NCBI GenBank assembly: GCA_010015655.1
Contig: ML976686.1
Span: 284,190 to 348,189, forward strand
Reading direction: 5' to 3'
Length of the DNA: 64,000 nt
From: Bimuria novae-zelandiae CBS 107.79
Lineage: Eukaryota; Ascomycota; Dothideomycetes; Pleosporales; Didymosphaeriaceae
Positions 8,630 to 30,290 of this stretch are shown here, in pieces (positions within the stretch are counted from its first letter, which is position 1; each line of letters begins with the position of its first letter). Made by a program: the position numbers and the translations under genes. The notes beneath the pieces are model-generated. The model worked only from the letters and a program-made list of their open reading frames with translations. It was not told where the DNA came from and ran no database searches.

Positions 8630-9079
8630 TGTTATAAGGCTCTCACACCTTAGTCCGGTCTGGGTTAGGGCGGTAAGGTATCGTGGTGCTTCACAGATTA
8701 TTTAGTAGTATAAGTTAATGCGACACTTAGCGTGGCTAGATAATCTAATCTTATAATAAAGTAAGATAACTATTAGTCTATATAGGAGAACGTACTCGCA
8801 CAGAAGATATGTAAGTTAACTACAAGGAGAGAAACAACATAGGAGAATTATCACACTATATACTAGTCTGTTTCCTCCTTGTAGTCCCGCCAAGACTCCG
8901 TAGTCCCAGGGACTCTAGTAGTCCTATGGGACTTCCTTTTATGCGGGACTTTAATACGTAACTACTAATATAAGCTACCCCGCGCCTTTTTGTATTTTGT
9001 TATTTTTACTATCTTGTTAATAATTACTTTCTTAGCGTAATTACCTAGCTTCCTTCTTTTAGTTCTTGTAGTCGTAACA
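8630..9079 (-). repeat. Gypsy-1 3' LTR (450 bp)
   Basis: Matches 15244-15693 along its full length with mainly C/T and G/A differences. Starts TGTTATAAGG and ends GTCGTAACA. Near its middle it carries several short inverted AGTCCC/GGGACT arms that could form hairpins. Confidence 0.93.
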
Positions 9080-9228
9080 CTATCCTCCCTTTTAAGGTTA
9101 TTATCCTAATATCTTACTTTACTATGCTATGCCATTAGCGCGTAGGTGCTAATTATTATAAAGGTGCGTCCCCCCTGCGTCTTAAGGTAGGCCGCAGCCT
9201 CTCCTTAATTCCCCTTGCCTTACTAACT

Positions 9229-9804
9229 ATGCTAAGAACCCCTTGTTCGTCCCTTGCGACCTGTCGTGCCCGTGCGTAAAAGGTAGAAGCTTAGGGCCTA
9301 GAGATAGCGTCTAGTTATAAGCGTTATTAGAAGAAGAAGTTATAGTATTTTATTAACGCTGCTTTTAGGCAGTGTGCGGGCTATCTCGCAGCCCATGCCA
9401 AATATAGTCTATAGATTCCTAAGAAGGATTAGGAGCGCGTTTAGAAAGAGAAGCGCGAAAAGCGCCTTAAGCTTCTTCGTGCGAAGGAGCTAGCTGCTTG
9501 CTTAGAGCGTGAATTAGCGGAGGTAGAGGAGAAAGAGCGCAAGTATGCTTAATATAACCTACGCATAGCTAATGCGATTAAGGCGTTAAAGTAGCTAGAG
9601 GAGGATTTAAAGGGTATAGCTAGCATTTGTAAACCATCGCCACACGTACCTCTAGGGGCTAACTTAGGCTAGTTACAGGCTAACTTATTTATTTCTTTTA
9701 ACCCTTTCGCGTCTTTTAACCTCTCTAAGTTCCTTGCTAATCCGGTCGCGGCGCCTCTGGATGTTCCTCGTGGAACTTCTCCAGCGCTGTCCTACAGTTC
9801 GTGA
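9229..9804 (+). pseudogene. Antisense ORF of Gypsy-1: decayed Zn2Cys6-like plus coiled-coil protein (192 codons)
   Basis: On the strand opposite gag-pol, a frame from ATG 9229 to TGA 9804 is interrupted by ten stops, eight TAG and two TAA, none TGA, as expected if former CAG, CAA or TGG codons were mutated. Codons 30-59 (9316-9405) read Y-x2-Y-x6-Y-x8-C-x2-Y-x6-Y, the exact spacing of the Cys ligands in the Gypsy-3 counterpart; every Tyr is TAT, one G-to-A step from TGT. A Glu/Lys/Leu-rich coiled coil follows (EKREKRLKLLRAKELAACLE and beyond), then a hydrophobic C-terminal part that shares ANLG-x2-QAN with the Gypsy-3 ORF. The last codons overlap the chromodomain-end region. ATG is 150 bp from the 3' LTR, which could supply an antisense promoter. 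Confidence 0.75.
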
Positions 9805-12800
9805 GGTTTTATACTAGTTCCTATGTGTTATGGTCCTCTGGCCATCCTTCCCACTTCACTAGATACTTGTACTGACGCCCGATTTCTTGTAGGTTCCTAA
9901 TGGCTTCGACCTCGTACTCCTTGTCCTCGAGTTCGAGTTGTGTTTCTAGTTTGGCATTTGGTGGTGCTAGTTCTAACAATAACTTATAGAAGACTAGGTA
10001 GATTCGTGTATCTATAGGTAACTATAGTTTAAAATTAACTAGTCCTCTAACCTCTTAAATTTTAAATAGTCCTTTTTAAAGGTTATCTAGTTTTTTACTT
10101 AGCCTTATTATCTTAAGATTTTTTCGCGAGAGGAGGACTCTATCCCTCTCCTTAAAAGTTAGTCTTATAATTCTTTTTTTATTTACCTATCGCGCTATTT
10201 ATTTATTACGCCGCGTAATATTCTCGTGCAGTGTCCTATGCAGGTTCTATATAAGTTTGGCTTTATTAGCTGCGTTCTTCGCAATACTCTGGATGTCCAA
10301 TGGATCCCGGTAAGTCGTCGGCTCACATCCATGGTTGGCATAATATGGCAAGTACCCCGTAGTCGCCGATCTTGCGCTATTATATGCCAGCTAGGCTGTT
10401 GGCAACAGCTCGACCTAATTATCTTAAAGCTTATTTATATATATCTGGAGATATTATTCTAACGTTTAGTTTATTTGCTTAGTTTAGTTATCTATTTTAG
10501 GATAGAAGCTCGTCGTGAGCTTATACTTAATTCCTAATTTAGCTATAAACGTGGTCTAGTATAATAATGTAAATATCTTAGCCCTATCTATAATAAACTC
10601 GTTAGGTCGTCTAACCTATAATATTAGTTCTTGTTCTACTACGTAGGCTAGTTCTTCTACTAATATAGCTTCCCTAATTAGCACAAATCTTAACTCTTTA
10701 GTAAGTTAATAGATTATAACTAAAATTAAGTTATAGGGATCCTTGTTCCCTAGTGCTAGTAATGCCAGTAACTTTACGATAAAGTCCATAGTTACGCTTA
10801 ACTATAGTCTTAGAGGCGGCTTTAGTAACTATAAGAGGCTATAGGGCTTATATCTCTTAAGCTTATTCTTATAACAGGCTAAATAGTTGCCTAAAACCTT
10901 CTATACCGCCTAGCGTAGCCTAGGGATAGTATATTTATTCGCAATTTAACGCGTTGTTTTAGCGATCCCTAAGTATCCCTAATCCCTATTCTTATATAGT
11001 TTTTTAATTAGCAGCGGAGCCATCTACTCGCTAATCTAGATATAGTTTTAATAGTCCCGTGCTATTAATTTCGTAGCTTAGTAGAAATCGTACGCTTAGT
11101 AATCCTTATTCGTGAGCCTACTATAATCCTATATCCTGTCTATAACTAGCCTGTAATAGGCAAGATCCGCGCGCTGTACTTCCAGTGCTGGCGCGAGCTA
11201 TATCTTATTATAGCGAAGGATTCCGTCCTTCGCGTAGGTTAGGATTACGATATAATTACTACTATTATCTTCTTCTATAAGGTCTAACTATCTACTAAGT
11301 GCATCTGCCATAGTGTTTGCGTTTCCTAGCAGATGCGTGATGCGGAAGTTAAATTCTACTATCTATTTAGACTATCTAGCCTGTCGCCGATTAAGCTTCT
11401 TAGTCGTTGTAAAGCGGGTTAGATTAAGGTAATTAGAAAATGCCTCTATCTAATACTTAGCTCCCTTAAGCTGTGCTTCCTATTATTTAAAGTAGTTAAT
11501 AATAGCAAGTAATTTTTTATTATAGATTTTATAGTTAAGCTCCGCTCCTAAGAGCTTTCTTACATAATAGAAGACGGGTCTCCACTTCTAGTCATTACAT
11601 TCTTGTAGTGGTACGGCCCCCAACGCATAGTCCAATACGTTTGTATAGATGCGGTGTTATCGCTCCGGGTCGTATATCTATAGTAGGGGTGCTATTAGGA
11701 ATAGGCGCTTTAGTTATTTAAAAGCTTCCTTCTCTATTTCCTGTAGAGGACGCCATTTCCCTATCTTTATAAGTTCTCTTAGTAGAGTGGTGACCTTTAA
11801 GTAGTTCCTAATAAATTTGCGATAGAAGTTAGTAAAGCCTAAGAAAGATTAGATATCCTTTACTAATTCTAGTAGTAACTATTCTTCTATTGTCGCGATC
11901 TTCTTTAGGTCCATTTTAACACTTTCTCGGGATATTACAAATCCTAAATATTCCGTCTCAGTAACATGAAACTCGCATTTCTTAGGGTGTAGGAGCAATC
12001 GATACTTCTATAACTTTTATAGTACTTTCCGCACATGCTCCTTGTGTTCTTCTAGGGTCCCATGTAAATATATTAGGATGTCGTCAAGGTACGCCATGTA
12101 AAATACGTCTAAGTATTTATGTAGTACTTAATTTATTAACTCCTAAAAGGTTGCTAGTGCGTTAGTTAGCCCTATAGGTATAACTATATACTTAAAAAGG
12201 CCGTATCGCGTGCGGAAAGCCATTTTCCACTTATGCCCTTTTATAATTTAAATTCTATAGAATCTATCCTAGACATTAAATTTCGTGAAGTATTTAGCTC
12301 CTCGGAGTCTATCTATAAGCTCTATTATTAGTAGTAATAAGTAGCGATTCTTAATTGTCACGGCGTTTAGCTATTTATAATCTACATAGAGTCGCAGCCT
12401 GCCGTCCTTCTTGTAAATAAAGAGTATAGGGAAGGCCGTAGGGCTCTAACTAGGCTGCTATTTCTTAGAGCGCAGGTTTTTCTAGATAAGCTCCTTTAAC
12501 TCTTTTTCTTATTTATATATAAGGGGCCTTAGGCGCTCTAGCCGTAGCTTAGCTCCTTCTATTAATAGTATCTTATAATCCTATTCTTTATGTTTAGGTA
12601 GGATAGTCTTGTCGTGTTCCTTAAATAGGTCTGCGAATTTCTTGTATTCTTCTAGTAGACTAGGATTATTTAGGACTATTTTAGTCTCCTAGACCTATAT
12701 ATAGTGCACCTGTCCTAGGTATTACTTTAAGATCCTGTCTATTTTACATACTAATATTTCTTATATCTTAGATAGTCGGCTCTCCTTCCTTGCCTAAGGT

Positions 12801-15222
12801 TTTCGTGGAGTTTCCCTTCTACTAGGACTCTCCTAAGCCATCACTAGTGGCCTTCGGGGAAGGATTATTTATTTAATCTAGTTTATCTATAGATTATGTT
12901 ACTCTAGCTATTTATATCCTACGATAGCTTTAATGTCTCCCATCTCTGTAATAGTAAAAACATGTTAGCTCTCTAGGCCTGCTATGTTAACTTATACTAG
13001 CGCTGTCTCGAGGCGTAGCTAACTATTACTATATCCTTATAATTAGGTCCTGTCCGCAAGTCCTATTTGCAATAGTATCTTTTTGTTACGATATAGTATA
13101 TCGTATTTCTTGACCACTTGTAGGGCAATCAGACACGCGTCTACCCCTAGGTTAATTAGTACTATAACACAATGTATATACACCGTAATGTCTTTAATTA
13201 AGCGCTTCTCGACTCTGCGAGTGTCTACTTAATAAGCTATAATAATCGCACTATTACTAGTGTAGCTCGTTGCCTAGTAATAATTTAGTTTTTTAAGTCT
13301 TCGGACTTGTTTTAGACCCCCCATAAGGCCTCTACCTCTTAGATCTAACCTTTAAGTCGTGCTAGCTTCGAGACTTCCTTAATTTAGTACTACTTATATT
13401 ACTATTAATATAGTGCATAGGTTTCTTTAATCCTATTAGATTCGTATACTCCCGGTATCTCATGTTGCGGGCAGTTTAGAGTAAGGCACTCGTTCTGGGC
13501 TAATGCGTTATACCCTGGGTAGCTATCTAAAGAAGCTGCTTCTTCCTGCAGGTTTAGGTGTACGAAGCACTATAGGTTACATTACTCTTACCTAATTAAT
13601 AAGTAGTCTACGTCTCTTCCTAGCTACGTGCTCCCTATTATCGTGCTAGTATCGCGGGGGTCTAAGCCCTAAGGGAACTAGCCTATTTTAAACTTTTATT
13701 ACCTGTGTACCTCGCAAGTAATATTAAAATATTAATACTAACTATTCTATTTATAGTGCTTAGCCTAATAGGCTAAAAAGTGCTTGTAGTAATTATTAGG
13801 CACGCTACACTAGCTCTGCTTTAGCCTATAGTGTTCTAAACCTCCTAAAAAATAGGAGGCCCTAACTCTAGCCTTAGAGTGTTGTTGGCATCCTTTGCGC
13901 GTGCATTGCCACTACTTGGCGTATTTATATTGTTCCTGTATCGTGATCTGGCGTAGGTATTGCTTTAGGCGCCCTTGTAGTTTTTCTACTAACTAGTAGG
14001 CGTCCTATGCGTGTGCCCCTTAGACGATTACTTTTGCCTTACACTAAGACGATTAATGTAGCGCACTGCTGCACATCCAGTAGGTGTTGTTAGCTAGTCT
14101 TTAGAAGATCTAGTACTTAGGAAGGGTCTTTCGTTCCTCTTCCTCTTTTATTGGCTCTAGGATCTCCTGCGTAAGATCCACTTCGTCGGCTTCTGCCAGC
14201 GTGAGGGTGGCCATGGCCACTTGTAGGAGGTTGGTTATATTAACCTTAGTTTCCTGACCGTCGTAGTCTTTAGCGAAGTAGCCTTATTTACTATATTAGA
14301 GGTAGGCTTTATCTTTAAACCTCTATTCTCGTTCTTTCTACAAAATGCTATTCTTGCCCTAGTAACTCTTCTTTAGTTTATACAGCTGTTTTCTCTTGCC
14401 GTTTTTCTTTTTGTACCATCGGGCTTTATTAGTTATAATAATATCTCTGTCCTGGTCTCTTCCTGCAGGCCTGGATCAATTTTCTTTTCTAGTAAGTAGT
14501 CTAGTACCGTGCTATTTCTCTAGCTTGCGTTCGTACAGGCGATTATCTACTTTAATTATATTATTAATAAGTTCTTCTAGGTCGTTTGCTTTTCCTTAGT
14601 GGACTAATTCGTCTTTGACTAATTCTTTTAGTCTATTATAGTAGGCAATTATGAGTGGGGCTTCCCCCTATCTATTAAGTTCTGCCACAATCTGTTTAAA
14701 CTCTAGTGTATAGAGTACCGCCGATTTCTCCTAACGTAGGCGCTGGAGGCGTAGTTTGGCTTAATATCCTTTATTAATAGTGCTAAATATTCCTTTTATG
14801 GCCTTGCGGAAGGACTCCTAGTCCTTAAACGCGTCTTTAGTAGCGTCTAAATTATAATCCTCTACTTTGCTATTCTTGAGGAAGTTATTAATTATTAGTC
14901 TAGCCTACGTAGCTGCCTTATCTTATATATTTATGTAAGTAACTAGGATCTTGTCTTATTCCGTATTAAACTTTCCTGGGTTGTAGTAGATGAATAGTTC
15001 TATCTAGGTTAGGAACGTTCCTGGGTGGTCCTTTCTGGAATAGGGTTTAGGCTTTAGGACCTTTAGTTAATACTTTGCATTTTCCTATTAGCTTATCTTC
15101 TCGCTTATCTAGTTAATAATTTCTTGTAGCTAGGCTATCTAAGCCGCTTGTTTAACAACTATCTCTCTTAGGGTCTTTTCCTTAGGTGCCAGAGCTACAG
15201 TGGTCGAACTAGGTCCTGCCAT
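9800..15222 (-). pseudogene. Gypsy-1 gag-pol remnant with chromodomain
   Basis: Gag begins MAGPSSTTVALAPKEKTLRE at 15222. Reverse transcriptase lies at about 11,960-12,430: KKDGRLRLYVDY, then [20 protein letters not shown] and the catalytic YLDD at 12080-12091. RNase H follows (about 11,430-11,800), then a degenerate integrase (about 10,300-11,250). The chromodomain (about 9,827-9,925) reads YEVEAIRNLQEIGRQYKYLV and KWEGWPEDHN. Stops are TAG/TAA at expected Gln or Trp positions, for example W in the KFNVWD-like motif. The RT active-site Asp pair is intact, but the frame is not translatable. Confidence 0.9.
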
Positions 15223-15243
15223 TATACCGTAGGGTAGTTAAAG

Positions 15244-15693
15244 TGTTATAAGGCTCTTACACCTTAGTCTAGTCTAGGTTAGGGCGGTAAGGTATCGTGG
15301 TGCTTTATAGATTATTTAGTAGTATAAGTTAATACGACACTTAGCGCGGCTAGATAATCTAATCTTATAATAAAGTAAAATAACTATTAGTCTATATAGG
15401 AGAACGTACTCGCACAGAAGATATATAAGTTAACTACAAGGAGAGAAACAACATAGGAGAATTATCATACTATATACTAGTCTGTTTCCTCCTTGTAGTC
15501 CCGCCAAGACTCCGTAGTCCCAGGGACTCTAGTAGTCCCATGGGACTTCCTTTTATGCGGGACTTTATTACGTGACTGCTAACATAAGCTGCCCCGCGCC
15601 TCTTTATATTTTGTTATTTCTGCTATCCCGTTAACAATTACTTCCTTGGCGTAATTACCTGGCTTCCTTCTTTTGGTCCTTGTAGTCGTAACA
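15244..15693 (-). repeat. Gypsy-1 5' LTR (450 bp)
   Basis: Same length and ends as 8630-9079. It precedes the gag start codon at 15222 on the minus strand, so it is the 5' LTR. The very short distance between LTR and gag Met (21 bp) means the primer-binding site must overlap the start region; I could not match it to a tRNA. Confidence 0.93.
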
Positions 15694-16059
15694 CCTAGCC
15701 TTACTATAGTATTAATAGTACTACTAGATAAATTTGCCTTTATTAGTACGTACTTTTTTTTCTTTTTTATATTACTACGCACCTTAAACTTTGTTAGATT
15801 AGCTAATTGTTATTATTCAGGATCCAACATGAGGATAGCGAACCATTTTGTACTTAGTTATGACGCGTACTCGTGAGCGCACTCTTGTTCTCGCCAAACT
15901 ACGGCGTCGGCGCTTAGGGAGTTACGTGACTGGTCACCAAAGAGCGACCTTAGACTAGTATATAGAAACGTGGAGTAGGGACCTCTGTACTTATGTTTAG
16001 TTATACTAATTAATTTTTATTATAAATAGTTTACTAGCTTTCTTTTCTCTTTAGTTTTA

Positions 16060-16640
16060 GCGTATATTACGTTTTAACTTATAGTAGTCTTTATTAATTT
16101 AGATAGGTTCTTCTAATAGTACCTTTATAGCGTTAATTTTTACGCTACTACGTAGTAGTTCTTTTTACACTAACCTCTTGAGTTCCTTATAGTATATTAT
16201 TATAAAGCTAATATTATTTTAAAGGACTTAGTTTACGTACTTACGAAATTTAGCGTTATATTTTACTATAAAATAGGTTTATTAGATACTCTGTATAGCT
16301 TGTTTAGTAATAACTACTTTATTAGTAATTTTAAAGTATTACTTAACCTTCTCATAAAAGTTATTATAGTCATTAATATTTTTATTAATTATATCTCTAG
16401 TACTATTATCTCTAGCTAGGTAATTATTAAGATATAGTTTAATCTACTTAAAAGCGTGTTCTTTTATATAAGTAAAGGTAAATATAGTTTTATTATCCTC
16501 TTCCTATTATTTCTTTATTCTATAAAAGTATAGATCAAGTTATAAGATCTATAGTTCTAAATTCTTATAATTACTATAAAAGAAGTTAAATTTACTATAG
16601 TAGCTTCTTTTATCTTTTATAGTAATTATATTTTTCTTCA
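16060..16640 (-). pseudogene. Gag relic related to Gypsy-3
   Basis: Minus-strand translation, with stops tolerated, gives a gag-like stretch: KYNAKFRKYVN, KELLRSSVKINAIKVLLEEP and INKDYY. This matches in order and spacing the Gypsy-3 gag motifs KYAAKFRKYAV, EELLRSSVKIETLEELYKET and INREWF. Stops are TAG/TAA. No pol or LTR partner was identified around it, so it is a fragment of an older relative inside the hAT-like region. Confidence 0.7.
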
Positions 16641-16699
16641 AAATATCTATAGCGTTAGAAAGGATTTTATATTTACTTATATTAAAGATGTTTAAAATA

Positions 16700-17758
16700 T
16701 TAAGCCCTTTAAGGTAGCTAGTCTTAAAAGAGACTAGAGTTAGTTCTTAAGTAAAAGTAATATTAAGATAAGTAAGAGGTATTAATAGCTTCTGCGTATT
16801 AATAGATTTATTAATATTAAAAAAATATATAATTATAAATAAATTAACTAGGGCCTAAGCATAATCTAAATAATAGATTAAATATAAAGTTAAATATAAG
16901 TATAGAGGAGCTATACTTAGCGTTCCTATATACATAACTAATCCTATAATATCCCATAGTTCTATATTATCCTAAACGTGATACATGTAGAATTCTATAG
17001 TATAGTTACGTAATCCTAATATCCTATAATCTTGGCGTATGGGACATCGTGAGACATTACATAGTCCTTAATAGGGTAGTAGCGCTACCTTTTATTATAA
17101 AGTGCTTAATATCGTTCTATTAAATCTTATATAACGATAGCACGTGATAGGGAAAGGAACACATGGCTACTCGCTTATAAAAGCTAGGATTAACACTAGT
17201 TCTAATACTACTTATATATATATTATACTATACAAGAATACACTAACTTTAGTATTCTTATGCATACCTTTTAGTACAAGTAGGGAAGTCACATAGTATT
17301 GACTTAGTAAGCAGAGCGCTTACCCTATTACACCTAGGATCCTAATATAAACTAAGTTTATTTATTATTTAGCTATTCTTAAAAAGTATAATAACCTAAT
17401 TATAAGGTAGACTTTTTTACACTAGATAGAGAGGTAGTACTTGCCTAAAAAAATAATAAATGGCAAGATTACCTAGCCTATTATATTAATATCTTAAATA
17501 AATAAAGTATACTTTAATTGCTCTATTATATGCTCTTTAGCTATCCTTAATAATTAAAGCTGATAGTAACTATTCTAGTTAATATTATACCTACTAATAA
17601 GCTAGATTTACTAAAGTTATAAGTATTCTTATCTAAAATACTATACTTAGTATTAATATTCTTTACAGGCCAGAACTAGCCCTCTATAGCCCTAAGATCC
17701 TTATAACAGACCCTTTTATAATTATGCTTTTAATTAAACTTAATTTTAAGTAGGCTGG
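16700..17758. other. Unassigned AT-rich repeat sequence
   Basis: Strongly AT-rich, no recognisable protein on either strand. A stretch near 17,296-17,345 resembles a tRNA D-arm region (TGACTTAGTAAGCAGAGCGC) followed by GGATCCTAAT, possibly a decayed tRNA-derived element. Otherwise nothing assignable. Confidence 0.4.
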
Positions 17759-17760
17759 TA

Positions 17761-18169
17761 AATGGATTGGATCGCAGGGGCCACAGTTAGGTCTAACTAA
17801 GCAGAACCCCAAAATTCTAAATTTTAAACTCTTTATTAACTTAATAAATATAAGACCTATTCTTATGCAATTTTAATATTAAGTGTATATATATAAGTTA
17901 TATAACTCTTAAAAAAAGCCTATATTTTATATTTATATTAGAAAGAAATTATCCTTTAAGTAATATTTTATGTTATTTTTTACGATGCACGACTTAATAT
18001 ACTATATAATTTTTTAAACATTAAATATATTACTACTAATGTATATATACGCCTTATATTAAATTTACACAAGTATAGCTCCTCTATTTATGAAGTTATA
18101 AGGAGTTTAAAGTTTAGAATTTTTGTGTTCTACTTAGACCCAACTGTGGCCCTTGCGATCCAAACCATT
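17761..18169. mobile_element. MITE-like element, 409 bp, about 70-bp TIRs, TA duplication
   Basis: The left arm starts AATGGATTGGATCGCAGGGG and its reverse complement closes the element (about 18,100-18,169), with scattered transitions. TA flanks both sides (17759-17760 and 18170-18171), as for Tc1/mariner-type insertion. The interior is AT-rich and non-coding. A non-autonomous element is the natural reading. Confidence 0.82.
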
Positions 18170-18252
18170 TATAAAGCCTAATTTTAAGCTCTAACTAATG
18201 CTTAATAAAATTCATAGCCTAGTTTTAACTAATAAAAATATAGTACTACTTA

Positions 18253-18495
18253 GGCTAGTAAATAGGTTAGGTTCTATTATATAAGAACCTAATCCTAACC
18301 TAACTTTAACCTAACTTTTTAGCACTAGTGTAGGTTAGGATTAAGTTAAAGTTAGGTTAGGATTAAGTTAAAGTTAGGTTAGGATTAAGTTAAAGTTAGG
18401 TTAGGATCAGGTTATATTATATAAAAACTTAACCTTAACTTAACCTTAACCTAATCCTAACCTAAGCTTAGTAATCCTTAACCTATTTACTAGCC
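18253..18495. mobile_element. Palindromic MITE-like element, 243 bp, TA duplication
   Basis: The ends GGCTAGTAAATAGGTTA and its complement are flanked by TA (18251-18252, 18496-18497). The interior is an imperfect palindrome made of CCTAACCTTAA/TTAAGGTTAGG-like blocks, and the right arm contains three perfect 22-bp tandem units. A long hairpin can be drawn across most of the element. Confidence 0.75.
18335..18400. repeat. Three tandem 22-bp units
   Basis: Units TTAGGATTAAGTTAAAGTTA plus GG repeat perfectly at 18335, 18357 and 18379, and a fourth partial unit follows. They lie inside the palindromic MITE-like element. They resemble degenerate telomere-type TTAGG strings but lie internally and are transposon-borne. 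Confidence 0.9.
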
Positions 18496-18954
18496 TAGTA
18501 TTACTTAGCTTATAAAAATTAACAATATCTTTTATAATAATAAGTTAGGGCGGAAATTCTTGTGCGTCGAAGTTAAAAATATTCTAAATAATTATTTTTT
18601 CTATTATTTTTTATAGCTTTATTATATTAACTATATAATTATATAAAAAAGTAACTCTAGCGCGTCGTGTGCCTAGCATACTTTAAGAAATATTATAAAG
18701 TATAGTAGTGCATTATAGTATTAAATTTATATTTAATTTAAGAGCATAGAGTACGCGCTATATTTAGCCTTCTTTTAAGTCTAGTAAAGTATTCTATTAT
18801 TAAAATATTGCGATTTGTTATAGGTAATAGTACGTTTTAGTGGGGTCTTGGAAAGTATCCAGCTCGCCTAGGTGTCTAGCTCGCTTATGAAGTACGTTAA
18901 GTTACGAAAAATTATAGTAACTTGTAACATTACGGCCCATCTCTACTTCCTTTA

Positions 18955-19003
18955 CCGTGTCCGTGCGCGTAACGATCGGATTCGCGTAACGATTGCCAAA
19001 CAC
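18955..19003 (+). repeat. Left TIR of pogo-like element (49 bp)
   Basis: Matches the reverse complement of 33633-33681 at 45 of 49 positions; all four differences are transitions. Confidence 0.92.
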
Positions 19004-19399
19004 CAAACCATCTAAACTTTTCACACGCGATAAATCTATCAATATAGACCTAATTTAAGCTACAATAGATAAAATCAAATTAATTAAACTAGGAAAACTG
19101 TTGATAGGGCTCTTACAGCTAGCTATACATGAGGTGAGCATAGTATGGCAAGGTAGGAGGTTTTTACGGTGTGTACAGCGTACGAAGTAATAGGGAGGGC
19201 AACTAGTTCGTGTAATTGCTCTATCTCTTTATTGTACGAACGAAGGTGGCGATATTTCAGGAGGCGAGCTACGCACGGACATTACATAAGACAACCACGT
19301 GATTACGTGTTGGGCCTTATAGAATACCCTTCGCCGTATCGCCCCTGCGTACGGACAAAAACACTTTATATACACTAAAAGTGGCGCACAGACATGGCG

Positions 19400-20190
19400 T
19401 TAATTAAAAATACTTTATTATAAAATTATAGATAGGTTTAATTATCGCGAACTACTAAGAGAATTAATTAATAAAAGCTTAACTTATAGTAAGAGCAGGA
19501 GTTAATATACTATTTTAAAAAACTTATAAAGAAACATATATCTCTTAATAGAGAAATAATACGGAACTTTGTCTCTTTAATAGTAAAGGAGCTAGTTATC
19601 AAAAGCTAGGTTACGCGCTTTATTAACTAATATAGTATTTATTTTATTTTATAATACGTAGTTAGGATAGATTATAATCGCTATAAAGCTAATTTAGTAA
19701 ATAAATATTACTACTTTCTTAACTTTCTATATAGCAGGATTAATTAATATTATATAAATCCTTAGTATATTTATAATATAGACAAAAAAGGCTGCCTAAT
19801 TAGTATTATTAATAAATTGAAGAGAATATTTAGTAGATAAATATTTAAGAAGATAAACAATAATATTAGGCTTACCTAGCTTAAGTAGGTGTTTAATTAC
19901 TGTATATAAAAAAGACTTAATAATTATATTAACTTTTAATTATGAATAATTACAAATTCTATATTATAGTAGATTTTATTAACTACTATAATTAAAATAA
20001 AATCCTACTTACTATCTTACCTCTTTATTTAACTTATATAATTTAGCTACTTAATATTATACTATTTAAGTCTTTCTTAATAGCCTACTTAGTAAAGCTA
20101 TTATAATACCTTTATAGAAGCTAAGGCCTAGCTTTTATTACTAAAGGCAATTTCTTCTCCTTATTCTAGAATATATAAAAGGCCTCCTTA
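19400..20190 (+). pseudogene. Pogo-like transposase remnant, N-terminal and DDE part
   Basis: Recognisable with stops tolerated: YNIDKKGCLIS near 19,780, which corresponds to NMDEKG with the first catalytic Asp, and further on LLTILPLYLTYIIQLLNIILFKS, related to the FPPH..LQPLDVVMFK block, then FITKGNFFSLF just before the Gypsy-2 insertion. The same protein in a fresher state is seen at 63,287-64,000. Stops are TAG/TAA. Confidence 0.8.
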
Positions 20191-20405
20191 TGTAATAGGC
20201 TAGATGCCTTGTTGTACTATTCCTCGGTGAAACCCTCGGTGAAACTCTTAGTGCTCCTTTAGACTGAGTGGGGCCTTAGAAATCTCTCGAATCTTCTTAA
20301 TAATAACAGCGCACATATAAGTTTGGCCTTACTTATAAATAGTTTACTCCTTATTAAATATAATCTTATTACTAGGCATTAGTAACCTTTGCGCAGCCCC
20401 TTATA
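20191..20405 (+). repeat. Gypsy-2 5' LTR (215 bp)
   Basis: Begins TGTAATAGGC and ends CCCCTTATA, against CCCCTTACA in the 3' copy, so the terminal CA has become TA by transition. Confidence 0.92.
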
Positions 20406-20589
20406 TTTTATATTTAATTACCCTTAAGTAGCTAGTGTAGCCGTCCCCTAGTGCTCCACTAATAGACTAATTACAAGACCTGCTTCTAAGCAGTAAGCAG
20501 TAACAAACTAAGCTATATAGTTAATCCCTAGCTACCCTAATAGAACGACTTGCAAGACCTGCTTCTAAGTAGTAAGCACTACTATAATA

Positions 20590-20760
20590 AGCAACGCTAG
20601 TGCAAGGACCTCTAATAGTTAAACGCCTGCCTAAGCACCACGATAAGCGACGCTAGTGTAGGGACCTTTAATAATTAAACGCCTGCCTGAGCACCACGAC
20701 AACGAGCAACGCCAGTATAGGGACCTTTAACAGTTGAACGCCTGCCCGAGCACTACGACG
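20590..20760 (+). repeat. Three 56-59 bp tandem repeats in the Gypsy-2 leader
   Basis: Units start at 20590, 20646 and 20705. Each contains a CGCTAGTG- or CGCCAGTA-like stretch, then GGACC, then CGCCTGCC and GAGCAC or AAGCAC. A second duplicated block, GACCTGCTTCTAAG, occurs at about 20,478 and 20,553. They are non-coding and upstream of gag. Confidence 0.8.
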
Positions 20761-20899
20761 AACGCAGTAAGATAGAGACTAGTACTTACTATAGAGCTTT
20801 AAACGCTTAATAAGATAATAAAGGATAATCTTAGCAAATAATACTAACACTACTAAACTCGAGTATTAAAGCAATAATACAGTAGATAATAGTATAGAT

Positions 20900-23896
20900 A
20901 GGCAAACTTATAGCGCGAATAGCAAGAATCAAAAGTACTAATGTCCTAGCACCTACTGCGACTACTGCTGGTATAATACCTGCGACACCTGCAGCACCTA
21001 CAACACCTGCGACACCTGCGGCAGCGTACGAACCGAAAGGACTTAAGGACCCTGAGGCATTTAATAGAACTCGAAGCTAGTATTTACCATAGAAATACTA
21101 GATTAAAGCAAAGCTAAGGTCTAAGACTTGACGATTCTATATAGACCGACTCGCGATCGACTACACTTTTAGTCGTATAATAGGCAATGCCAGAGCACGT
21201 ATCTTCCCATAGGTATCTATTTACGCCGTAACTAGCACGCTTAATTAGTTCTTTTAGTATCTTAATAAAGCGTTTAAGGACGCGCACATGGCTAAGACTA
21301 TAAAGAGCAAGCTTTAGAACATATAGTAGAAAACACACAACGTACGCGACTTTATTCAGGACTTTAACAAGAAAGCTCTAATAGCTAGCCTATTTAACTA
21401 TACTATCCTAAAGAGCATGTTCCTACACGCTCTTAATCACGAGTTACGGACCGCCCTTGCAGGCACTATCTTTCCTAAGAGCACTATAATTAAGGAGATA
21501 CACTTACACATTACTGCTATATTAGATAATCTATAGCGGTTAAAGCTAAGCAGCAAGAAGAGAGACGCACTACTATAGAATACTACCTTAAGTAATATTT
21601 CTGCTAATCTGATAGACTAGGAACTAAGTAGAATATAGATGCAACGAGCGAAATAGGTCCCTTAAAAGGAGATTAATTAATAACGCGATAATAGATTATG
21701 TTTATAATACGAAAAGAAAGGCTACTAAATTAAGTCTTATACTCTAAAAGCTGCTTAGAATCCTAAGCGACAGCTAACTTAAGCCGCGAAAGTAAAAACT
21801 AAATTAAAAGTAAAAGATAATAATAACGCGATAGTAGTAAATAATAATAAGTTAGAAAAAGAGTAGCTCCTAGTTAAAGTCGCGATCAGGAGCCTTCACG
21901 AGTAAGTAAGAACACAAGAACAGAATAGGATAAGTTTAAAAAGAAAAACATGCTAGCACCCCCGCTTATAGTACATGTACTAGTTAATTAAACTAATTAC
22001 ACCGTAGCACTAATTAACTCTAGATACCTCTCTTACGCCCTTATAACCTATTCCTTTGTAAGACGAGCCAAACTCGAACGCATAGCGATTCCACGAAAGC
22101 CTATTATAGGGGTAAATAATTAAGTTAGCTAGGTTAACGAAGTTGCAAAGTTTACGTTTAATATAAATAGCTACACTAAGACTAGATTTGCGTATATCAC
22201 GCTAAATAATACTAAAGAGGACATTATCCTAGGACGTCTATAGATAAATTAGAACCAAGTTACTATTACTCCTGTAAAGAAGTCAATATACCTGCGCGCT
22301 CTAGGTATTAGAATCTATAGTTAAGAAGGTAAGGCCCACCCACTAGAGATTTAAGAGGTTAGCGCCACAGAATTCTAGCGATTAATAAAAATGGCTTAGA
22401 GCAAAAACAAGAATCTAGGGGGAGCCATAAAGATATTCGCCGCCTCGCTAGTAGATATTAATAAGGCCTTAGCGCCTAAGCCAAAGATCGACGTCCTGTC
22501 TTTAGTTCCTAAGCACTAGAGGAAGCATATAACGCTCTTTAATCCTAAGGAAGCGAGCAAATTACCGCCGTATTAATCTAGAATTAACTACGCAATTAAG
22601 CTAGAAGAGAAGAAAGGGAAGAAGCCTAAAGCCCCTTAGGGACCTTTATATAACATGTTAAAAGGAGAGCTTCTAGTGCTACGGAAGGAACTTATATCTC
22701 TACTTAATAAAGGTTTTATATAAGTAAGTAATTCACCTGCTGCGTCGCTAATCCTATTTACAAAGAAGCCAGGAGGTGGACTGCAACTATGTGTTAACTA
22801 TAAAGCACTAAACGCCTTAACAAAGAAGGACTAGTATCCCCTACTACTTATCTACGAGACTTTAAATAATATTACAAAGGCGAGGTAGTTTATAAAACTA
22901 GACGTTATTATAGCCTTCCACAAGATCCGAATCTAAGAAGGGGACGAGTGGCTTATAGCTTTCTAAACACGTTTTAGATTATTTAAATAGCTTATTACAC
23001 TATTTGGACTAGCGAATGCCCCTAGCACATTCTAACGGTATATTAACTAGATACTCCGCGAATATTTAGATAATTTCTACATAGCGTATCTTAATAATAT
23101 CCTTATCTACATAAATAGTTCTCTCTAAAAATATCGCGAGCAAGTTAACAAAGTGCTTATATAGCTAAAAGAAGCTAGGTTATATCTTAATATTAAGAAG
23201 TGCAAGTTTAAGGTTAAGATTATAAAGTATCTTAGCTTTATTATTAAAGCTAGGAAGGGCACACGCATAGATCTAAAAAAGGTTAAAGCTATTAAGGATT
23301 AGGAGGCGCTAAAGACTGTTAAGGGCGTACAAAGCTTTCTAGGCTTTACCAATTTCTACTAACGATTTATCCAAAATTTTGGCCAAATTGCCGCTCCCCT
23401 TACAAGACTCACAGGCAACGTTACCTTTAGATAGATAGTAGAGGAACAGAAGGCCTTCGATACACTTAAGAAAGTCTTTATATCCAAACTAGTGTTGGCC
23501 TAGTTCTAAGTAGACCGCGATACAGTTATAAAATACGACTTATCTAGTTATGTCACTACCAGAGTACTATCTTAATATAATAAGAACGGAATCCTACGTC
23601 CCTATGCCTACTTCATAAGAAAGAACACGCTTGCTAAATGCAACTATAAAATCTATAATAAAGAACTACTAGTAGTTATTAGAGGACTTAAAGAATAGGA
23701 TGCTAAACTTTAATTAGTAGAAAAGTTTAAGGTGGTTACTAACCACAAGAACTTAGAGTACTTTATAAAGCCGCGAATATTAAATAAGAGACAGGTTCGC
23801 TGGTCGCTTATCCTAGGCAGATATAATATGGAGATCCTCTATAGGCCAGGCAAGCAAAATATCCGAGCAGACGCATTATCCCGGCGAGAGCAGAAT
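20900..23896 (+). pseudogene. Gypsy-2 gag-PR-RT-RNase H remnant
   Basis: Gag-like motif AYEPKGLKDPEAFNR near 21,030. RT lies at about 22,650-23,140: [20 protein letters not shown], then LITLFGLANAPSTF and YLNN at 23087-23098, where the catalytic YLDD is expected (GAT-to-AAT twice). RNase H follows at about 23,400-23,800, ending in PGKQNIRADALSRREQ. The Gypsy-3 insertion follows directly. Stops are TAG/TAA. Confidence 0.88.
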
Positions 23897-24354
23897 TGTT
23901 AGGATCTGAACATGTATGGGACGCGGAGGACCAACGGGCCCTTAGCGGGGGTGACACTTGGTAGGGTTGCGCAACCGAGATCACGTGATGTACTATCCAG
24001 CCAAGACATACTATCCAGCCAAGATCATGGACGGTATACCATCCATGGATGACACGACCATCCACCAGAAAGATAGGATGGCAGAAAGATAGATGGACGG
24101 TAACCAATAAACCTCTTGTATATAAACCGACACGAATACCCTTATGGCATTCGTGTTTAATCTTGTTTATCAATCTATCGTTTAGATCTGAGTAAGCAAC
24201 CTTGTTAATTTGATTATACTATACACACCTTTAATACTAACGCCCTAGTGATAAGCGCAAGCTATTACTACAACCTCTTTTATCTTACTAGTATTCCTGC
24301 CTAAGAACCAACCCTAACCCCTTAGGGATTAGCTATCCTTTTAGGGACTTAACA
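23897..24354 (+). repeat. Gypsy-3 5' LTR (458 bp)
   Basis: Begins TGTTAGGATCTG, ends GGGACTTAACA. Contains a CACGTG E-box-like hexamer (ATCACGTGATG) and, further on, TATATAAACC, a possible TATA signal followed by the likely transcription start. Confidence 0.95.
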
Positions 24355-24401
24355 TTTTGAACACCCTTAACATAAATACTAATAGGACCCCTAACTCTTC
24401 C

Positions 24402-27400
24402 ATGGCTTCGGACAACTATATTACCCCTATAAGGGATGGCAAGAACAAGGCGCATAAACCTAACTTGTATAATAGTAATTATACCCTCCTCGATACCTGG
24501 CTCTTACAGCTAGACCTCTACTTCTTCGACTAGAACTAAGACCTTAAAGATAAGAAGAAGGTTATCTTTGCAGCGACTTACATGCGAGGAAGTGCTAAAG
24601 AATAGATCTATCCTTACTTAGTTAAGTACCTAGACATGGATTACGACAACGAGGATAAAGACTATATTAACTGTAACAAAGATGCTATTAACATTATTAA
24701 AGACTACGCTAACTTCAAGAAATGCCTCTAATAGATGTTTAGAATCGCTAATAAAACCGCTATCGCTAAGCAAGCGATCTAGACAATCTAATAGTAATAA
24801 TCTGTAGCCAAGTATGCAGCTAAATTCCGCAAGTACGCCGTGTAACTTAACTAGGAGGATAAATCTCTTAAAACGATGTATAAATAAGGCCTTAAACGCA
24901 ATATGCGCGAAGAACTCCTACGTAGTAGTGTAAAAATAGAGACCTTAGAAGAACTGTACAAAGAGACCATCCACATTAATAGGGAATGGTTTGCATTACA
25001 AGAAGAGCTACGCAAGAACCCGAGGAACGTTAGTTTTAGACGATAGGCACCTATAGTCTACAGAGCGCCGCCGAAAACACCTCGACGCCAGCAACGCAAC
25101 TACTATAGACCCTAACCTATAAAAGATATCTAGTTTAATAACCTAAAAAAGGGAACAGGAAAGGCTATAGGCTTCCAAAAGCCTAACTAACGTATCTTAG
25201 ATAGAACCTAACAACAGGGGACCAAGACGCGTAAATGCTTTACATGTGGCAAACTGGGCCACATCGCCAGGAACTATAGATCTAAGAACAAAGTTATTAA
25301 ACAGTTAAACGTACTTATCGTCAATAACATAGAAGTAACCAACGAAGAATGGCAAGTAATACCCTCTATTAAGCAATCTAACATCCTAGACAAGGACTTA
25401 GAGCGATTAGACTTGCCTAACTCGCGACTCTACGAGGATGCATACAAAGGTTTAGATAAGAAAGAGATAGAGCTAATGCCTTAATCTCCTACACCTTACC
25501 CTAGCTAGAACAAACCTGTTACTAGTAAGACAACGAATGTTTTCGACTTCTTAGAAAAACACCAACCTCGAGAAGGAGACTTTAGGTTTACAGCGATAGA
25601 ACAACAAGACTATGTAGAAGCATTTTTTCATGCTTACTAACCCGACCTGGTTAGTAAAGTAGTAAGAGAAATGGCAGATTACCGCTACGCCCACAAAGAC
25701 CCTAAGAAGAAATACCTAAACAAAAGACCGAACTACAAACCATAGTACGACCTAGACCACCGTAACCCTACGCATAAGACTATACGATGGACCCTTTGCG
25801 GAGAAGATTAATATACTATTTATTACTAAGCTAAGGAATATAGCTACTTTCCCCGAACGTACTAATAATGCAGATAGGAGTGGTTTAACTGCCCTATTAC
25901 CTATTATAACGTTTACCTCTAGGATAAACGTAAAAAGCGATACTTTCCACACCTTAACTAAGCGCTAAACTAAGTAATGTCGCTACTAGTTAATAGAAAA
26001 TACGCATCCGACAAATGGCAAACATGCTTACACCCTAATTATAAGGAACATAAAGAGAAAAAAGGAAAGCATAGGTTTAATCGCATACTAAAAGGGACCA
26101 CGACCCTTAGGATTAAAACAGTAACGAAGGAAGAGGACGGTGAAGCTCTCCTAGAAAAGGGCTAGTAGTAGCCTTAGGAGAAGAAGAAGGAAGGACACCT
26201 TAATCCCGCAAAGCCACCTATAGAAAAGATGTCTTTTTTAGACCTAGGCTTAGGAGGGAAGACGCCTTTAGAGAACTAAATGCTATAAATAGTTAGGCAT
26301 TAATCAAGCTACTAGTATAGCTTAAAGAAACATGAATAAAAGCCATGCTAGACTTAGGAGCACAGGAAAGCTATGTGTTAAGAAAAGCACTTAATAGAGC
26401 AGGACTCTATAAGCGCAAGAAGGCTATACCCTATGCTATCCATGTCGCGAATAGATAACTGATGCCCGGCAAAGCAACGATTAAATATAAGGTCGAAACT
26501 ACCCTCACGATCTATAGACACCAGGAATTGATTACCCTTGACATTATTAAGGAAGCTAATTACGACGTAATTTTAAGATTACCCTAGTTAAGGAAGCATA
26601 ATCCTATAATTAATTAGGAGAGAAAAAAGCTATCCTTTAAGCGCTATAACTATGCATTACAAGCAAAGCCTACGCATTAATAGAGTATAATAGTAGATAA
26701 GAGAGCTATTAATACTATAGTCTCGCGACGGATAGTTGAAAAACGGAAGAAACCCTTGGCAGACGCTGGCAGGAACCACCAGGTTATAGAGCGCAAGAAG
26801 ATGGAGGAAAGCATAAACCATGAAATTTCGGAGTGCTATTAAGCATGGAATTATATATTTACTGAGAGAGAGGGAAAAGCAAACCTTTTAGAACATTAGC
26901 CCTGGGATCTAGCGATAGACCTAGTAGAAGGGAAAACGCCACCCTTTGGACTACTATATGGCAAGACTAGAAAAGAACTCTAGCAAGAAAAGAAATTCAT
27001 CGAGACGAATCTCGCGAAAGGATATATACAACTATCGACGTTACTAGCAGCCAGCCCTTTTATGTTTATTATAAAGAAAGACGGCACACTACGACTATGT
27101 ATTGACTATTAAAAGATTAACGACATGACGATTAAAAATTAATACCTACTACTAAATATCTTAGAATTAAGAGACTAACTCTCAAGAGCTAAACGCTTTA
27201 CACTAATAGACTTACGAGATAGATACTACCTTATACAAATTAAGGAAGGTAACGAGTAGAAGATAGCGTTTAGGTCACGCTATAAACTATTCGAATATAT
27301 AGTTATGCCTTTTAGACTCACTAACGCACCGGCAAACTTCTAAGCACTAGTTAACTACGTACTCTATAACTACCTAGATATATTTGTTATCGCATATATA

Positions 27401-29570
27401 GACGATATACTTATTTACTCTAAAAACGATTTAGATCATGTTCCGCATATACAGACGGTGTTAACAGCACTAGACAAGGCATATCTTAGGATTAAACTAA
27501 AGAAGTGCAAGTGGCACGTAACACGACTTAAATTCCTAAGACACGTTATTAGTATAGAAGGAATCGAAGTCGCACCTAATAAGATTAAATGCATTAAGAA
27601 CTAGCTAATACTAAAAATAGCGAAAAATATCTAAGAATTCTTAGGATTCTATAGATTTAATTAATAATTTATTAAGGATTACGCAAAGATCACGATACCA
27701 CTTATAAACTTTATAAGAAAAGATATACTATTCGCATAAACTACAGAGTGTAGAATGTCGTTCTAACTCTTAAAAACCGCATGCATTATGCCACCAGTAC
27801 TCATCTACTTTAGGGATGGAAAACCACTACAAATCGAAATAGACGTAAGCGACCTCGTAATAGGCGCCTACGCGAAATAAGAAAAAGATAGTAAATGGTA
27901 CCCTATTGCATATTACTTATGTAAGTTTACCGACACGGAAGCACGATATAACGTACACGATAAGGAACTATACGTAATTGTTAAAACACTAAAACACTAG
28001 AGAATCTACGCTCTTAGCTACTTTACACTTAAGATCTTCACGGACTATAAGAACCTTACACGCTTCACGACCACAAAAGAACTTACGCTAAGACAGGCAA
28101 GATAGTTAGAAACGCTTAGATAATATAAATTTAAGATTATATATACACCCGGCAAAGAAAACGGACGAGCAGACGCACTTAGCTAATAATATAATCTTAT
28201 AAGGGATAAAGTTAAAACCTACTCTATAATACTAAAATAAAATCCTAATAGTTCCTTAGAACCCACGGCGGAACTTAATTAACTCCTTATACTTACACGA
28301 GAAGTACCCAAGAAACAACAGACAGAGGTTATACGATAATACTACGACAACCCTGTATACAGACACCCTGGAATTAAAAAGATAGTGGAACTAATTCAGA
28401 GGAACTACAGCTTTAAAGGAATTAAGGAAGTAGTAGTAACCTATATACGCAAATATGTAGAATGCTAACGTAATAAACACGCAACACATCTTAAGTACGG
28501 AGAAATATAAGCTATCCAGATACCTACAGCACCTTAGGAAGACATCGCAATGGACTTTGTCACAGGATTGCCAAAGTCGAAAGATCCCACAAACAGAGTA
28601 AGTTACGACGTAATACTGGTAATCGTATGCAGATTTACTAAATACGTGAAATTACTATCGTGCAAAAAGGCAATAACAGCAATAGAACTAGCGTTCCTTA
28701 TCCTAGATTGACTTATACGACATTATGGCATCCCTAAGATAATTATCAGCGACAGAGACAAACTCTTTACTTTAAACTACTAGACAACACTCACGGCACT
28801 TATTAGAACAAAACGAAAACTATTAACAAGCCTACCACCCACAGACGGATGGACAAACAGAACGTACAAATTAAACAATGGAAACGTACCTACGCATCTA
28901 CTATAACAACCAGAAGAATAACTAGATTTCCCTATTACCAATAGCACAATTAGCATATAACAACAAGATATTAGTAGCAACTAGATATACACCGTTCTAT
29001 GCGAACCACGGAAGACATCTATATCTCTTTAATTAGACATTTCCTACTACTATTAGAACGGAAGAAGCCATCAACACGGCTATAAAAATAAAAGAAATAC
29101 ATCAACAACTCTAAGAGAACCTTGAGAAAGCTTAACAGCAAAGCATTTCCTATATAAACTAAAAAAGAAAAACGGCACCTTAGCTAAAAAAGGGGGATAA
29201 AGTATATCTACTTACGAAAAATCTTTGAACCTAGAAGAAAAAGCACAAGAAACTAGATTATGTTAAGGTTAGACTATTTTTTATTTCTAAACAAGTATCA
29301 CCGGTCAACTACTAATTAGAATTACCACCAGACGCTAAAATACACCTAGTATTCTATATAGACTGATTGGAACCAGCAGACTCTGAAATACTAGTTAAAA
29401 CCACCTTCTATTACCAACCAGAGGAGGAAACCGAATTCGAAGTTAAAAAGATACTACGACACATAGATTAGCCACAAACCTACTTAATTAAGTGGAAAGG
29501 ATATCTACACTTAGAAGACATATAGGAACTAGAAGTAAACCTTAACAACTATTATTAAATGTTAGCACAA
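24402..29570 (+). pseudogene. Gypsy-3 gag-pol remnant with chromodomain
   Basis: Gag starts MASDNYITPIRDGKNKAHKP at 24402. The zinc knuckle at 25236-25277 reads CFTCGKLGHIARNY, where the last Cys of CX2CX4HX4C is Tyr. RT (about 27,060-27,430) includes [12 protein letters not shown] and YIDD at 27395-27406, so the active-site Asp pair is intact. RNase H is at about 27,740-28,190, ending with PGKENGRADALS. Integrase (about 28,330-29,150) shows MDFVTGLPKSKD and HYGIPKIIISDRD, with a frameshift near 28,790. The chromodomain at about 29,430-29,560 reads EFEVKKILRHID and YLIKWKGYLHLED. Stops are TAG/TAA. Confidence 0.92.
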
Positions 29571-30054
29571 TACCATCGTTAGACCACGAGAAGGAACCCG
29601 GAACGATTAAAGGAGAACCAGATAGGAACTCGTTAAGAAGAAGATCTATTAGTAGATTAGGAAGGAGATTGTTGGCCTGTGACCAGCCTAGATTAGCAAG
29701 GAAATTGTCTTGGAACGGAGCGTCCGCACTTGAGCTCTCCGTCTCTTACACCTTATCTTAGGCATCTAGTAATTTCTTATCCTAACGCGCGAATAGCCTC
29801 TTACAACTCTTAATCTCTAATAACTCACGCTTATGCTAAGTAAGTTCTTATTAACTGCGTAACGTCTCTTCCTTAGCGCGAGCTAACTCTAGTTGCTTTT
29901 TACGCTCTTTATCCTTTACCTTCTCCCACTCCTCTTTAGGAACAAACAGCTCACACTCGCTCCTTGCAGCGATACAACTAGCATAACGACCAGACGCAGT
30001 ATCCACGAAACAACAAATGTTTAGCTTTTCGCAGCGGGTGCAGCGGAAAGACAT
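29542..30054 (-). pseudogene. Antisense ORF of Gypsy-3: Zn2Cys6-like plus coiled-coil protein (171 codons)
   Basis: On the strand opposite gag-pol, ATG 30054 opens a frame intact for 67 codons, then reading on through six TAA/TAG codons to TAA at 29542. Residues 5-34 give C-x2-C-x6-C-x8-Y-x2-C-x6-C (CTRCEKLNICC, then GRYASC and ARSEC), which is the fungal Zn2Cys6 spacing with the fourth ligand mutated Cys-to-Tyr. Then come LFVPKEEWEKVKDKERKKQ, a long charged coiled coil and a C-terminus with LANLGWSQANNLL. Every segment has a counterpart in the Gypsy-1 antisense ORF. The ATG is about 237 bp inside the 3' LTR. Function is unknown; a DNA-binding or dimerising role is inferred from the motif pattern only. 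Confidence 0.78.
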
Positions 30055-30290
30055 CTCCTTACTACCCCCTTTAACACGACAAATGCGATCACGCCGCTCT
30101 TAGGTCAAAGTCTTCTTACAAGGCGCGCGCGCTTTACGGGGCTTAGGATCCTTAGGCATGATCAGGAAGGCACTAAGACCAGAACGCGAAAACAGCGACT
30201 TACGCGAGTATTTATATGCGACGACTGTATCTACAGCCAGGAGGCGCGGAACGAGGATACCAAGGACGCTATCTGGAAGAGGGGAGGTAA

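What the first reader, a model, noticed from the sequence alone, without database searches (positions are those of the whole stretch)
9229..30054. Homologous antisense Zn2Cys6-like genes in two different chromoviruses
Gypsy-1 (minus orientation) and Gypsy-3 (plus orientation) each hold an ORF on the strand opposite gag-pol, at the same place: between the chromodomain and the 3' LTR, ATG next to that LTR (9229-9804 and 29542-30054). Both show the same layout: C-x2-C-x6-C-x8-C-x2-C-x6-C spacing, an LFVPKEEWE-like linker, a charged coiled coil and an ANLG-x2-QAN C-terminus. The spacing is that of the fungal Gal4-type Zn2Cys6 cluster, and the cluster-linker-coiled-coil order mirrors Gal4-type DNA-binding/dimerisation modules. 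A transposon-coded regulator transcribed from the 3' LTR in antisense is a possible reading; a nucleic-acid chaperone or host-captured fragment are alternatives.
Basis: partly seen in the sequence, partly recalled or inferred. Interest (0 to 1): 0.9.

Follow-up and report, generated by a model that had tools for sequence, protein, structure and literature searches.

The report
Antisense zinc-cluster gene in fungal retrotransposons
Retrotransposons in this fungus carry an extra gene, written backwards between their own genes and their end repeat, that codes for a protein resembling fungal gene switches; different versions of it have been swapped between elements, in one case together with the neighbouring control DNA.

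Summary
Partly confirmed, then extended. Both window copies are broken: the antisense frame has 10 (Gypsy-1) and 7 (Gypsy-3) internal stops and keeps 1 and 5 of 6 cysteines. Relatives show that the gene is real. Of 131 related database proteins held, 122 have the exact 2-6-8-2-6 cysteine spacing. Open copies exist in the same genome. The antisense frame has the lowest pN/pS of six frames in every comparison (0.25-0.41 within lineages). All 84 distinct copies examined lie antisense beside a chromodomain pol end. A TATA box lies 55-73 bases before the ATG (55 of 64 copies, 1.3 expected), inside the 3' LTR rather than in it. AlphaFold gives a small cluster, a long helix and a disordered tail; the cluster superposes on PPR1 and GAL4, but only 3 of 29 proteins scanned pass Pfam's Zn_clus cut-off. 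New: three versions occupy the slot (the third tentative). Types I and II occur on both pol lineages. In one comparison gene and U3 differ wholly while pol and R-U5 stay 87% and 94% identical. Best reading: an element-encoded, dimeric Zn2Cys6-like regulator acting on its own U3. Coding is shown; DNA binding and regulation are inferred. Ten paper searches listed no fungal description.

The parts
8630..15693 (-). Gypsy-1, complete element: 3' LTR 8630-9079, 5' LTR 15244-15693, flanked by 5-base duplications
   Evidence: LTR match, ends and duplications
9229..9804 (+). antisense gene of Gypsy-1 (type I, sublineage B), broken copy
   Evidence: 10 internal stops; homologous to many copies and to database proteins
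9157..9163 (+). TATA box of the antisense gene, 72 bases before the ATG
9767..9916 (-). chromodomain at the end of pol (pol stop codon 9680-9682)
   Evidence: Pfam Chromo 42.2 bits, stop position; coordinates worked out from these
23897..30748 (+). Gypsy-3, complete element: 5' LTR 23897-24354, 3' LTR 30291-30748, flanked by AGAAT
29542..30159 (-). antisense gene of Gypsy-3 (type I, sublineage A), broken copy; family start at 30159, not 30054
   Evidence: 7 internal stops; start shared with relatives
30209..30216 (-). TATA box of the antisense gene, 57 bases before the ATG
29436..29576 (+). chromodomain at the end of pol (pol stop codon 29634-29636)
   Evidence: Pfam Chromo 22.7 bits, just under the cut-off of 25.1, beside SH3_Tf2-1 41.5 bits; stop position; coordinates worked out from these

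Best explanation
Chromoviruses of this fungus, and by homology those of other Pleosporales, carry an antisense accessory gene between pol and the 3' LTR. Shown: it is protein-coding and under purifying selection; most copies have a TATA box and a common start-codon context just inside the 3' LTR; it encodes a basic N-terminal part, a Zn2Cys6-type cysteine cluster, a predicted long helix of 60-66 residues (coiled-coil-like) and a disordered tail. At least two, probably three, divergent versions occupy the slot; types I and II occur on both pol lineages; in one comparison gene and U3 differ wholly while pol and R-U5 are nearly the same. Inferred: the protein enters the nucleus, dimerises through the long helix and binds short GC-rich repeats in the U3 of its own element, and so sets transcription of the genomic RNA and perhaps of itself. 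The exchanged unit would then be a regulator plus its target.
For: Coding: antisense frame lowest pN/pS of six frames in all comparisons, 0.36 between A subgroups, 0.25 in the four least mutated A pairs, 0.41 C1-C2; transversions alone 0.52, 0.37, 0.34. Cysteines: 122 of 131. Promoter: TATA in 55 of 64, 1.3 expected; shared CTRACCATG. Place: 84 of 84 distinct loci beside an opposite-strand chromodomain pol end. Fold: two models with the cluster and long helix at pLDDT mostly above 87; 9 of 11 and 12 of 13 listed matches are Zn2Cys6 DNA-binding domains, e.g. PPR1 1.3 A over 35, GAL4 1.9 A over 34. Zn_clus above cut-off in P0131 (27.5), P0103 and P0124 (22.1; cut-off 21). Exchange. Repeats in U3.
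Confidence: 0.5

Rival explanations
1. Anti-silencing factor: the protein binds element DNA and counters methylation, heterochromatin or silencing, as the VANC proteins of some plant transposons do (recalled).
For: DNA-binding-like fold; heavy RIP-like mutation of the copies shows strong host defence; a promoter of its own would allow expression before the genomic RNA.
Against: No enzymatic or known anti-silencing domain in the Pfam scans; gives no special reason for exchange together with U3.
Confidence: 0.18
2. Integration or chromatin-tethering factor that works with the chromodomain to place new copies.
For: Always next to the chromodomain end in the loci examined (84 of 84); DNA-binding-like fold.
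Against: Coded antisense from what looks like its own promoter rather than with pol; types I and II occur with both pol lineages, against tight co-evolution with integrase.
Confidence: 0.12
3. Nucleic-acid chaperone or RNA-binding protein for genomic RNA or reverse transcription.
For: Small, basic N-terminus and cysteine cluster; element-coded.
Against: Spacing and predicted fold are those of Zn2Cys6 domains and not of a CCHC knuckle; gag of a related copy already shows a CCHC-like motif (L065, by eye).
Confidence: 0.1
4. The antisense RNA rather than the protein matters, and the frame is a by-product.
For: Antisense RNA would pair with the genomic RNA; PMC7264820 discusses this for plants (passages read).
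Against: Codon-level constraint in the antisense frame and conserved cysteines across species.
Confidence: 0.04
5. Chance open frame or an artefact of RIP.
For: Both window copies are full of stops and one keeps a single cysteine.
Against: Transversion-only pN/pS 0.34-0.52, lowest of six frames; 78-85% of the frame lies outside pol; intact relatives in other species.
Confidence: 0.02

Closest known systems
Plant antisense additional ORFs between pol and 3' LTR (aORF-3R): maize Grande gene23, rice RIRE2, Silene Retand with TRP28 (PMC7264820, PMC11963269; passages and one section read)
   Same: Same place and orientation; kept in many copies; suspected DNA-binding, regulatory role; Grande gene23 is reported to have a promoter upstream of the gene.
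   Different: Plants, and for Retand a non-chromovirus lineage; no Zn2Cys6 cluster is described there and no TRP28 match appeared here; exchange together with U3 was not described in the passages read.
HTLV-1 HBZ (from a passage of PMC11963269; details recalled)
   Same: Antisense gene between pol and 3' LTR coding for a nuclear protein with a DNA-binding-like and coiled-coil part.
   Different: HBZ is a bZIP protein made from promoters in the 3' LTR; here the TATA box lies inside the LTR border and the domain is Zn2Cys6-like.
Fungal Zn2Cys6 (Gal4-type) transcription factors, PF00172
   Same: Cysteine spacing, predicted cluster fold, order of cluster, linker and helix for dimers.
   Different: Only about 200 residues and no other domain found; mostly below the Pfam cut-off; helix of 60-66 residues; coded antisense in a retrotransposon.
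Lambdoid phage immunity regions (recalled; analogy only)
   Same: A regulator and its target DNA exchanged together between otherwise similar elements.
   Different: Here binding is not shown, and reverse transcription alone could move gene and U3 together.

Membership tests
Zn2Cys6 binuclear cluster (PF00172) | six cysteines spaced 2-6-(5 to 12)-2-(6 to 8) (range recalled) | tested here: met
   122 of 131 relatives have 2-6-8-2-6; type II 2-6-8-2-7. Window copies keep only 5 and 1.
Zn2Cys6 binuclear cluster (PF00172) | profile score above the curated cut-off | tested here: inconclusive
   3 of 29 proteins scanned pass, 20 of 29 list it at all
Zn2Cys6 binuclear cluster (PF00172) | basic residues between the second and third cysteine | tested here: met
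   K43 and R46 invariant in the 33-row alignment A2; in the more diverse A3 (64 rows) R49 (the same place) is nearly invariant but the lysine is not listed
Zn2Cys6 binuclear cluster (PF00172) | fold of the cluster | tested here: inconclusive
Zn2Cys6 binuclear cluster (PF00172) | binds two zinc ions and DNA | not testable with these tools
   needs protein
[quoted passage not shown]
   84 of 84 distinct loci examined are antisense beside the pol end; relatives in six genera, though their place in an element could not be read. The reverse count (pol ends without the gene) was not made.
Retand/TRP28 antisense protein | TRP28 domain (PF04195) | tested here: not met
   no such match among the proteins scanned with Pfam
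HBZ-like antisense gene | promoter within the 3' LTR and a bZIP domain | tested here: not met
   TATA box lies between LTR and ATG; no bZIP match in the Pfam scans; a further start in the LTR is not excluded
Chromovirus (Ty3/gypsy) | chromodomain after the integrase | tested here: met
   Chromo above cut-off in Gypsy-1; just below it in Gypsy-3, beside SH3_Tf2-1 above its cut-off

The most novel reading that the evidence does not exclude
Fungal chromoviruses carry an exchangeable control module, a DNA-binding antisense regulator plus its matching U3 repeats, swapped as a unit between otherwise near-identical elements. Elements would thus change their regulatory identity, much as lambdoid phages exchange repressor-operator immunity regions.
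Probability: 0.27. Interest if true: 0.9.

Novelty: new variant of a known kind. Interest (0 to 1): 0.74.

Why it matters
It would be an antisense regulator like HBZ or Grande gene23 in fungi, built from the most fungal of DNA-binding domains. It would make an open question, why retroelements keep antisense genes, testable with purified protein and laboratory yeast. It also warns annotators: database proteins named 'Zn(2)-C6 fungal-type domain' or 'GAL4 domain containing' include relatives of this transposon gene and can inflate counts of host transcription factors. The exchange of gene and U3 suggests how LTR elements change their control region while keeping pol.

Tried and rejected
Chance frame or RIP artefact: rejected by six-frame pN/pS, also with transversions alone. 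PDB by sequence profile: no match up to E 1. IMG/VR viral contigs: no relative. Plain Foldseek: weak, no match with E below 0.001; best is Pho7 at E 0.5 and 0.66. NCBIfam: nothing useful. Intron in the 5' part (GTRAGT-like site at -39 to -46 in several lineages, CTRAC before the ATG): the site lies too near the TATA box for one transcript to use both, and codons 1-35 look coding in the C1-C2 and A-B-C comparisons; left unexplained. U3 repeats as proof of binding: rejected as proof (exceptions; motifs chosen after looking; mononucleotide shuffles only). Exchange of gene and U3 as proof of a working link: weakened, since a template switch near the chromodomain plus normal strand transfer gives the same picture. 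Type III (L099, L100, L102) is too mutated for its cysteines to be read, and its link to types I and II is weak (best E 1e-4), so it is tentative. Kept as misses: L078 (no TATA) and L101 (no U3 repeat). Dropped: 20 of 84 distinct loci from the TATA count (too little flank or start not found) and 5 of 36 loci from the U3 table (L002, L094, L095, L103, L110). Alignment A1 used 20 of the 25 proteins; A2 33 rows, A3 64 rows, A4 20 rows. The pN/pS sets are 24 chosen copies and 7 type II copies, not all.

Papers: ten searches (open-licence PMC only); no listed title or abstract start describes such a gene in fungi. Listed papers were not read through. Read: PMC7264820 (passages, section 7), PMC11963269 (passages), PMC9694491 (one passage, a reference on transposons only), PMC3017866 (passages; RIP in Stagonospora nodorum, no antisense gene in them).
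Full report
Setting. The window lies in an unnamed 77.4 Mb assembly, G000 contig 31. Named relatives in the protein database come from Sporormia, Bipolaris, Exserohilum, Pyrenophora, Stemphylium and Alternaria. Pleosporales was looked up for Sporormia fimetaria, Exserohilum turcicum and Stemphylium lycopersici and is recalled for the others. The host is probably a Pleosporales fungus (inference).

The two elements. Gypsy-1 reads minus (LTRs 8630-9079 and 15244-15693); Gypsy-3 reads plus (LTRs 23897-24354 and 30291-30748); both have 5-base duplications. Their LTR pairs differ almost only by transitions: 28 (20 in CpA/TpG context) plus 1 transversion in 450 positions, and 30 (25) plus 0 in 458. 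This fits recent insertion followed by RIP. Chromodomain regions close both pol genes, in Gypsy-3 just under the Pfam cut-off. Pol stop codons are at 9680-9682 and 29634-29636, so pol and the antisense frame overlap tail to tail by 125 and 95 bases; 78-85% of the antisense frame lies outside pol.

The frames in the window. Neither is open. 9229-9804 has 10 internal stops and keeps one of six cysteines. The Gypsy-3 frame has 6 stops from 30054, or 7 from the family start at 30159, and keeps five cysteines.

The family. A search with copy 2 (X at stops) gave 25 proteins; a profile of 20 of them gave 229, of which 120 were listed; a third search, with the C-sublineage protein, gave 4. Of 131 proteins held, 122 have C-x2-C-x6-C-x8-C-x2-C-x6-C, against 0 of 6550 shuffles; two carry two clusters; 96 match a loose MPK-type start upstream of the cluster. 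Open frames were read in L069, L070 and L075.

Selection. 24 chosen copies were compared over the part before the pol overlap. Antisense-frame pN/pS was 0.36 between A subgroups (112 pairs), 0.25 for four pairs of the least mutated A copies, 0.41 for C1-C2 (6 pairs) and 0.62 between the deeply diverged A, B and C (143 pairs, pS near saturation). With transversions alone, which RIP cannot cause, it was 0.52, 0.37, 0.34 and 0.51. It was the lowest of six frames each time. The mirrored frame r2, which shares wobble positions, gave 0.33-0.80; the other four gave 0.87-2.73. The pairs are not independent, and the alignment was guided by the antisense protein, a mild bias. By region constraint is clearest in cluster, linker and coil. 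In the N-terminus it is clear in C1-C2 (0.24/0.76) and A-B-C (0.44/0.76) but, within A, with transversions alone it is not (0.07/0.09). The tail just before the overlap shows little.

Promoter. On the antisense strand a TATA box lies 55-73 bases before the ATG: 42 of 48 A, 10 of 10 B, 3 of 5 C, 0 of 1 outlier; 55 of 64 in all, against 1.3 expected from mononucleotide shuffles. 20 of 84 distinct loci could not be scored. The ATG context CTRACCATG or a RIP-like variant of it is shared. Both lie between the ATG and the 3' LTR. A further start in the LTR is not excluded: GTRAGT-like sites at -39 to -46 remain unexplained.

Context. All 84 distinct loci (100 with duplicates; both window copies among them) have the chromodomain pol end on the opposite strand just downstream, none on the same strand. 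They were fetched because they hold the gene; pol ends without it were not counted.

More than one version. Six loci were taken from the pol-end hit list, none of which is in the capped type I lists. All held an antisense frame in the slot: type I in L103 and L104, type II in L101, and a mutated third kind in L099, L100 and L102. Type II has cysteines 2-6-8-2-7 and a charged, coil-like stretch, and its frame has the lowest pN/pS of six, 0.53, or 0.46 with transversions alone (12 pairs, 7 copies). It sits antisense to pol in 7 of 7 loci read: P1-like pol in L101, L108, L109; P2-like pol in L105, L106, L107, L110.

Exchange. P1 pol ends are 79-84% identical, and P2 pol ends 67-80%, between elements that carry type I and type II, while the antisense proteins share 30-38%. 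Local alignment scores of the antisense proteins are 184-252 within type I across pol lineages, 254-280 within type II across pol lineages, and 61-114 between types. So each type is found with each pol lineage. L105 and L106 (P2, type II) against L051 (P2, type I): 86.8% and 86.5% identical DNA up to just past the chromodomain, then no match across gene, promoter and U3 (except 24 bases around the LTR start in L105), then 93.7% and 94.7% over the last 206 bases of the LTR. That last match begins 27-29 bases after the start of the sense TATATA, near the expected U3/R border. A template switch near the chromodomain, followed by normal strand transfer, would give this picture (inference), so gene and U3 may travel together mechanically. 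They travel together all the same.

U3 repeats. CCATCC or its complement occurs 7 times in U3 of L051 (0 of 1000 mononucleotide shuffles reach the maximum) and 5 times in L055 (1 of 1000); GTCCCA 6 times in L106 (0 of 1000); AGTCCC 6 times in Gypsy-1 (2 of 1000); Gypsy-3 itself is not significant (293 of 1000). In the wider table GTCCCA is repeated in type II elements of both pol lineages (L109 7, L105 6, L106 6, L107 4; L101 0), CCATCC occurs 2-7 times in 10 of 13 A copies and not in 3, AGTCCC 3-6 times in 7 of 8 B copies, and the five C copies have no such repeat. The motifs were chosen after looking, and Gypsy-1 shares the GTCCC core with type II. This is a lead to binding sites, not proof.

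Reading. By place the nearest known things are the plant aORF-3R genes and HBZ (PMC7264820, PMC11963269, passages). I judge the gene real (about 0.97), the domain Zn2Cys6-like (about 0.85) and self-regulation of the element the likeliest use (about 0.5). No fungal description appeared in the listings of ten paper searches.

Noticed in passing
L065 (G000:C3:861469-864918): Element with a large internal deletion: a frame with a CCHC-like motif runs into an integrase-end motif (by eye), the rest of pol is missing, and the antisense frame is nearly open. A non-autonomous derivative that kept gag and the antisense gene.
   Followed up: no
database proteins P0072 and P0090: Relatives with two zinc clusters in tandem, as if the antisense gene had been duplicated and fused.
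   Followed up: partly
database proteins P0037, P0003, P0091: Relatives bear misleading names: 'Chromo domain containing protein', 'TFIIIB Brf1 subunit', 'GAL4 domain containing protein'.
   Followed up: no
L103 about 977-1828 and L048 about 3114-3449: Open frames that look by eye like helix-turn-helix or transposase parts of other transposons, nested at or near these elements.
   Followed up: no
upstream of the antisense ATG, window about 30198-30203, and L061, L069, L071: A splice-donor-like GTRAGT at -39 to -46 and CTRAC just before the ATG recur across lineages (in the window copy as a RIP-like variant), close to the TATA box; function unknown.
   Followed up: partly
window 9229-9804 (sublineage B): The Gypsy-1 version looks mixed: its cluster half resembles sublineage A and its tail, which overlaps pol, resembles sublineage C (by eye in the alignment).
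   Followed up: no
L099, L100, L102: A third, strongly mutated antisense frame in the same slot, with 104 matches in the genome.
   Followed up: partly
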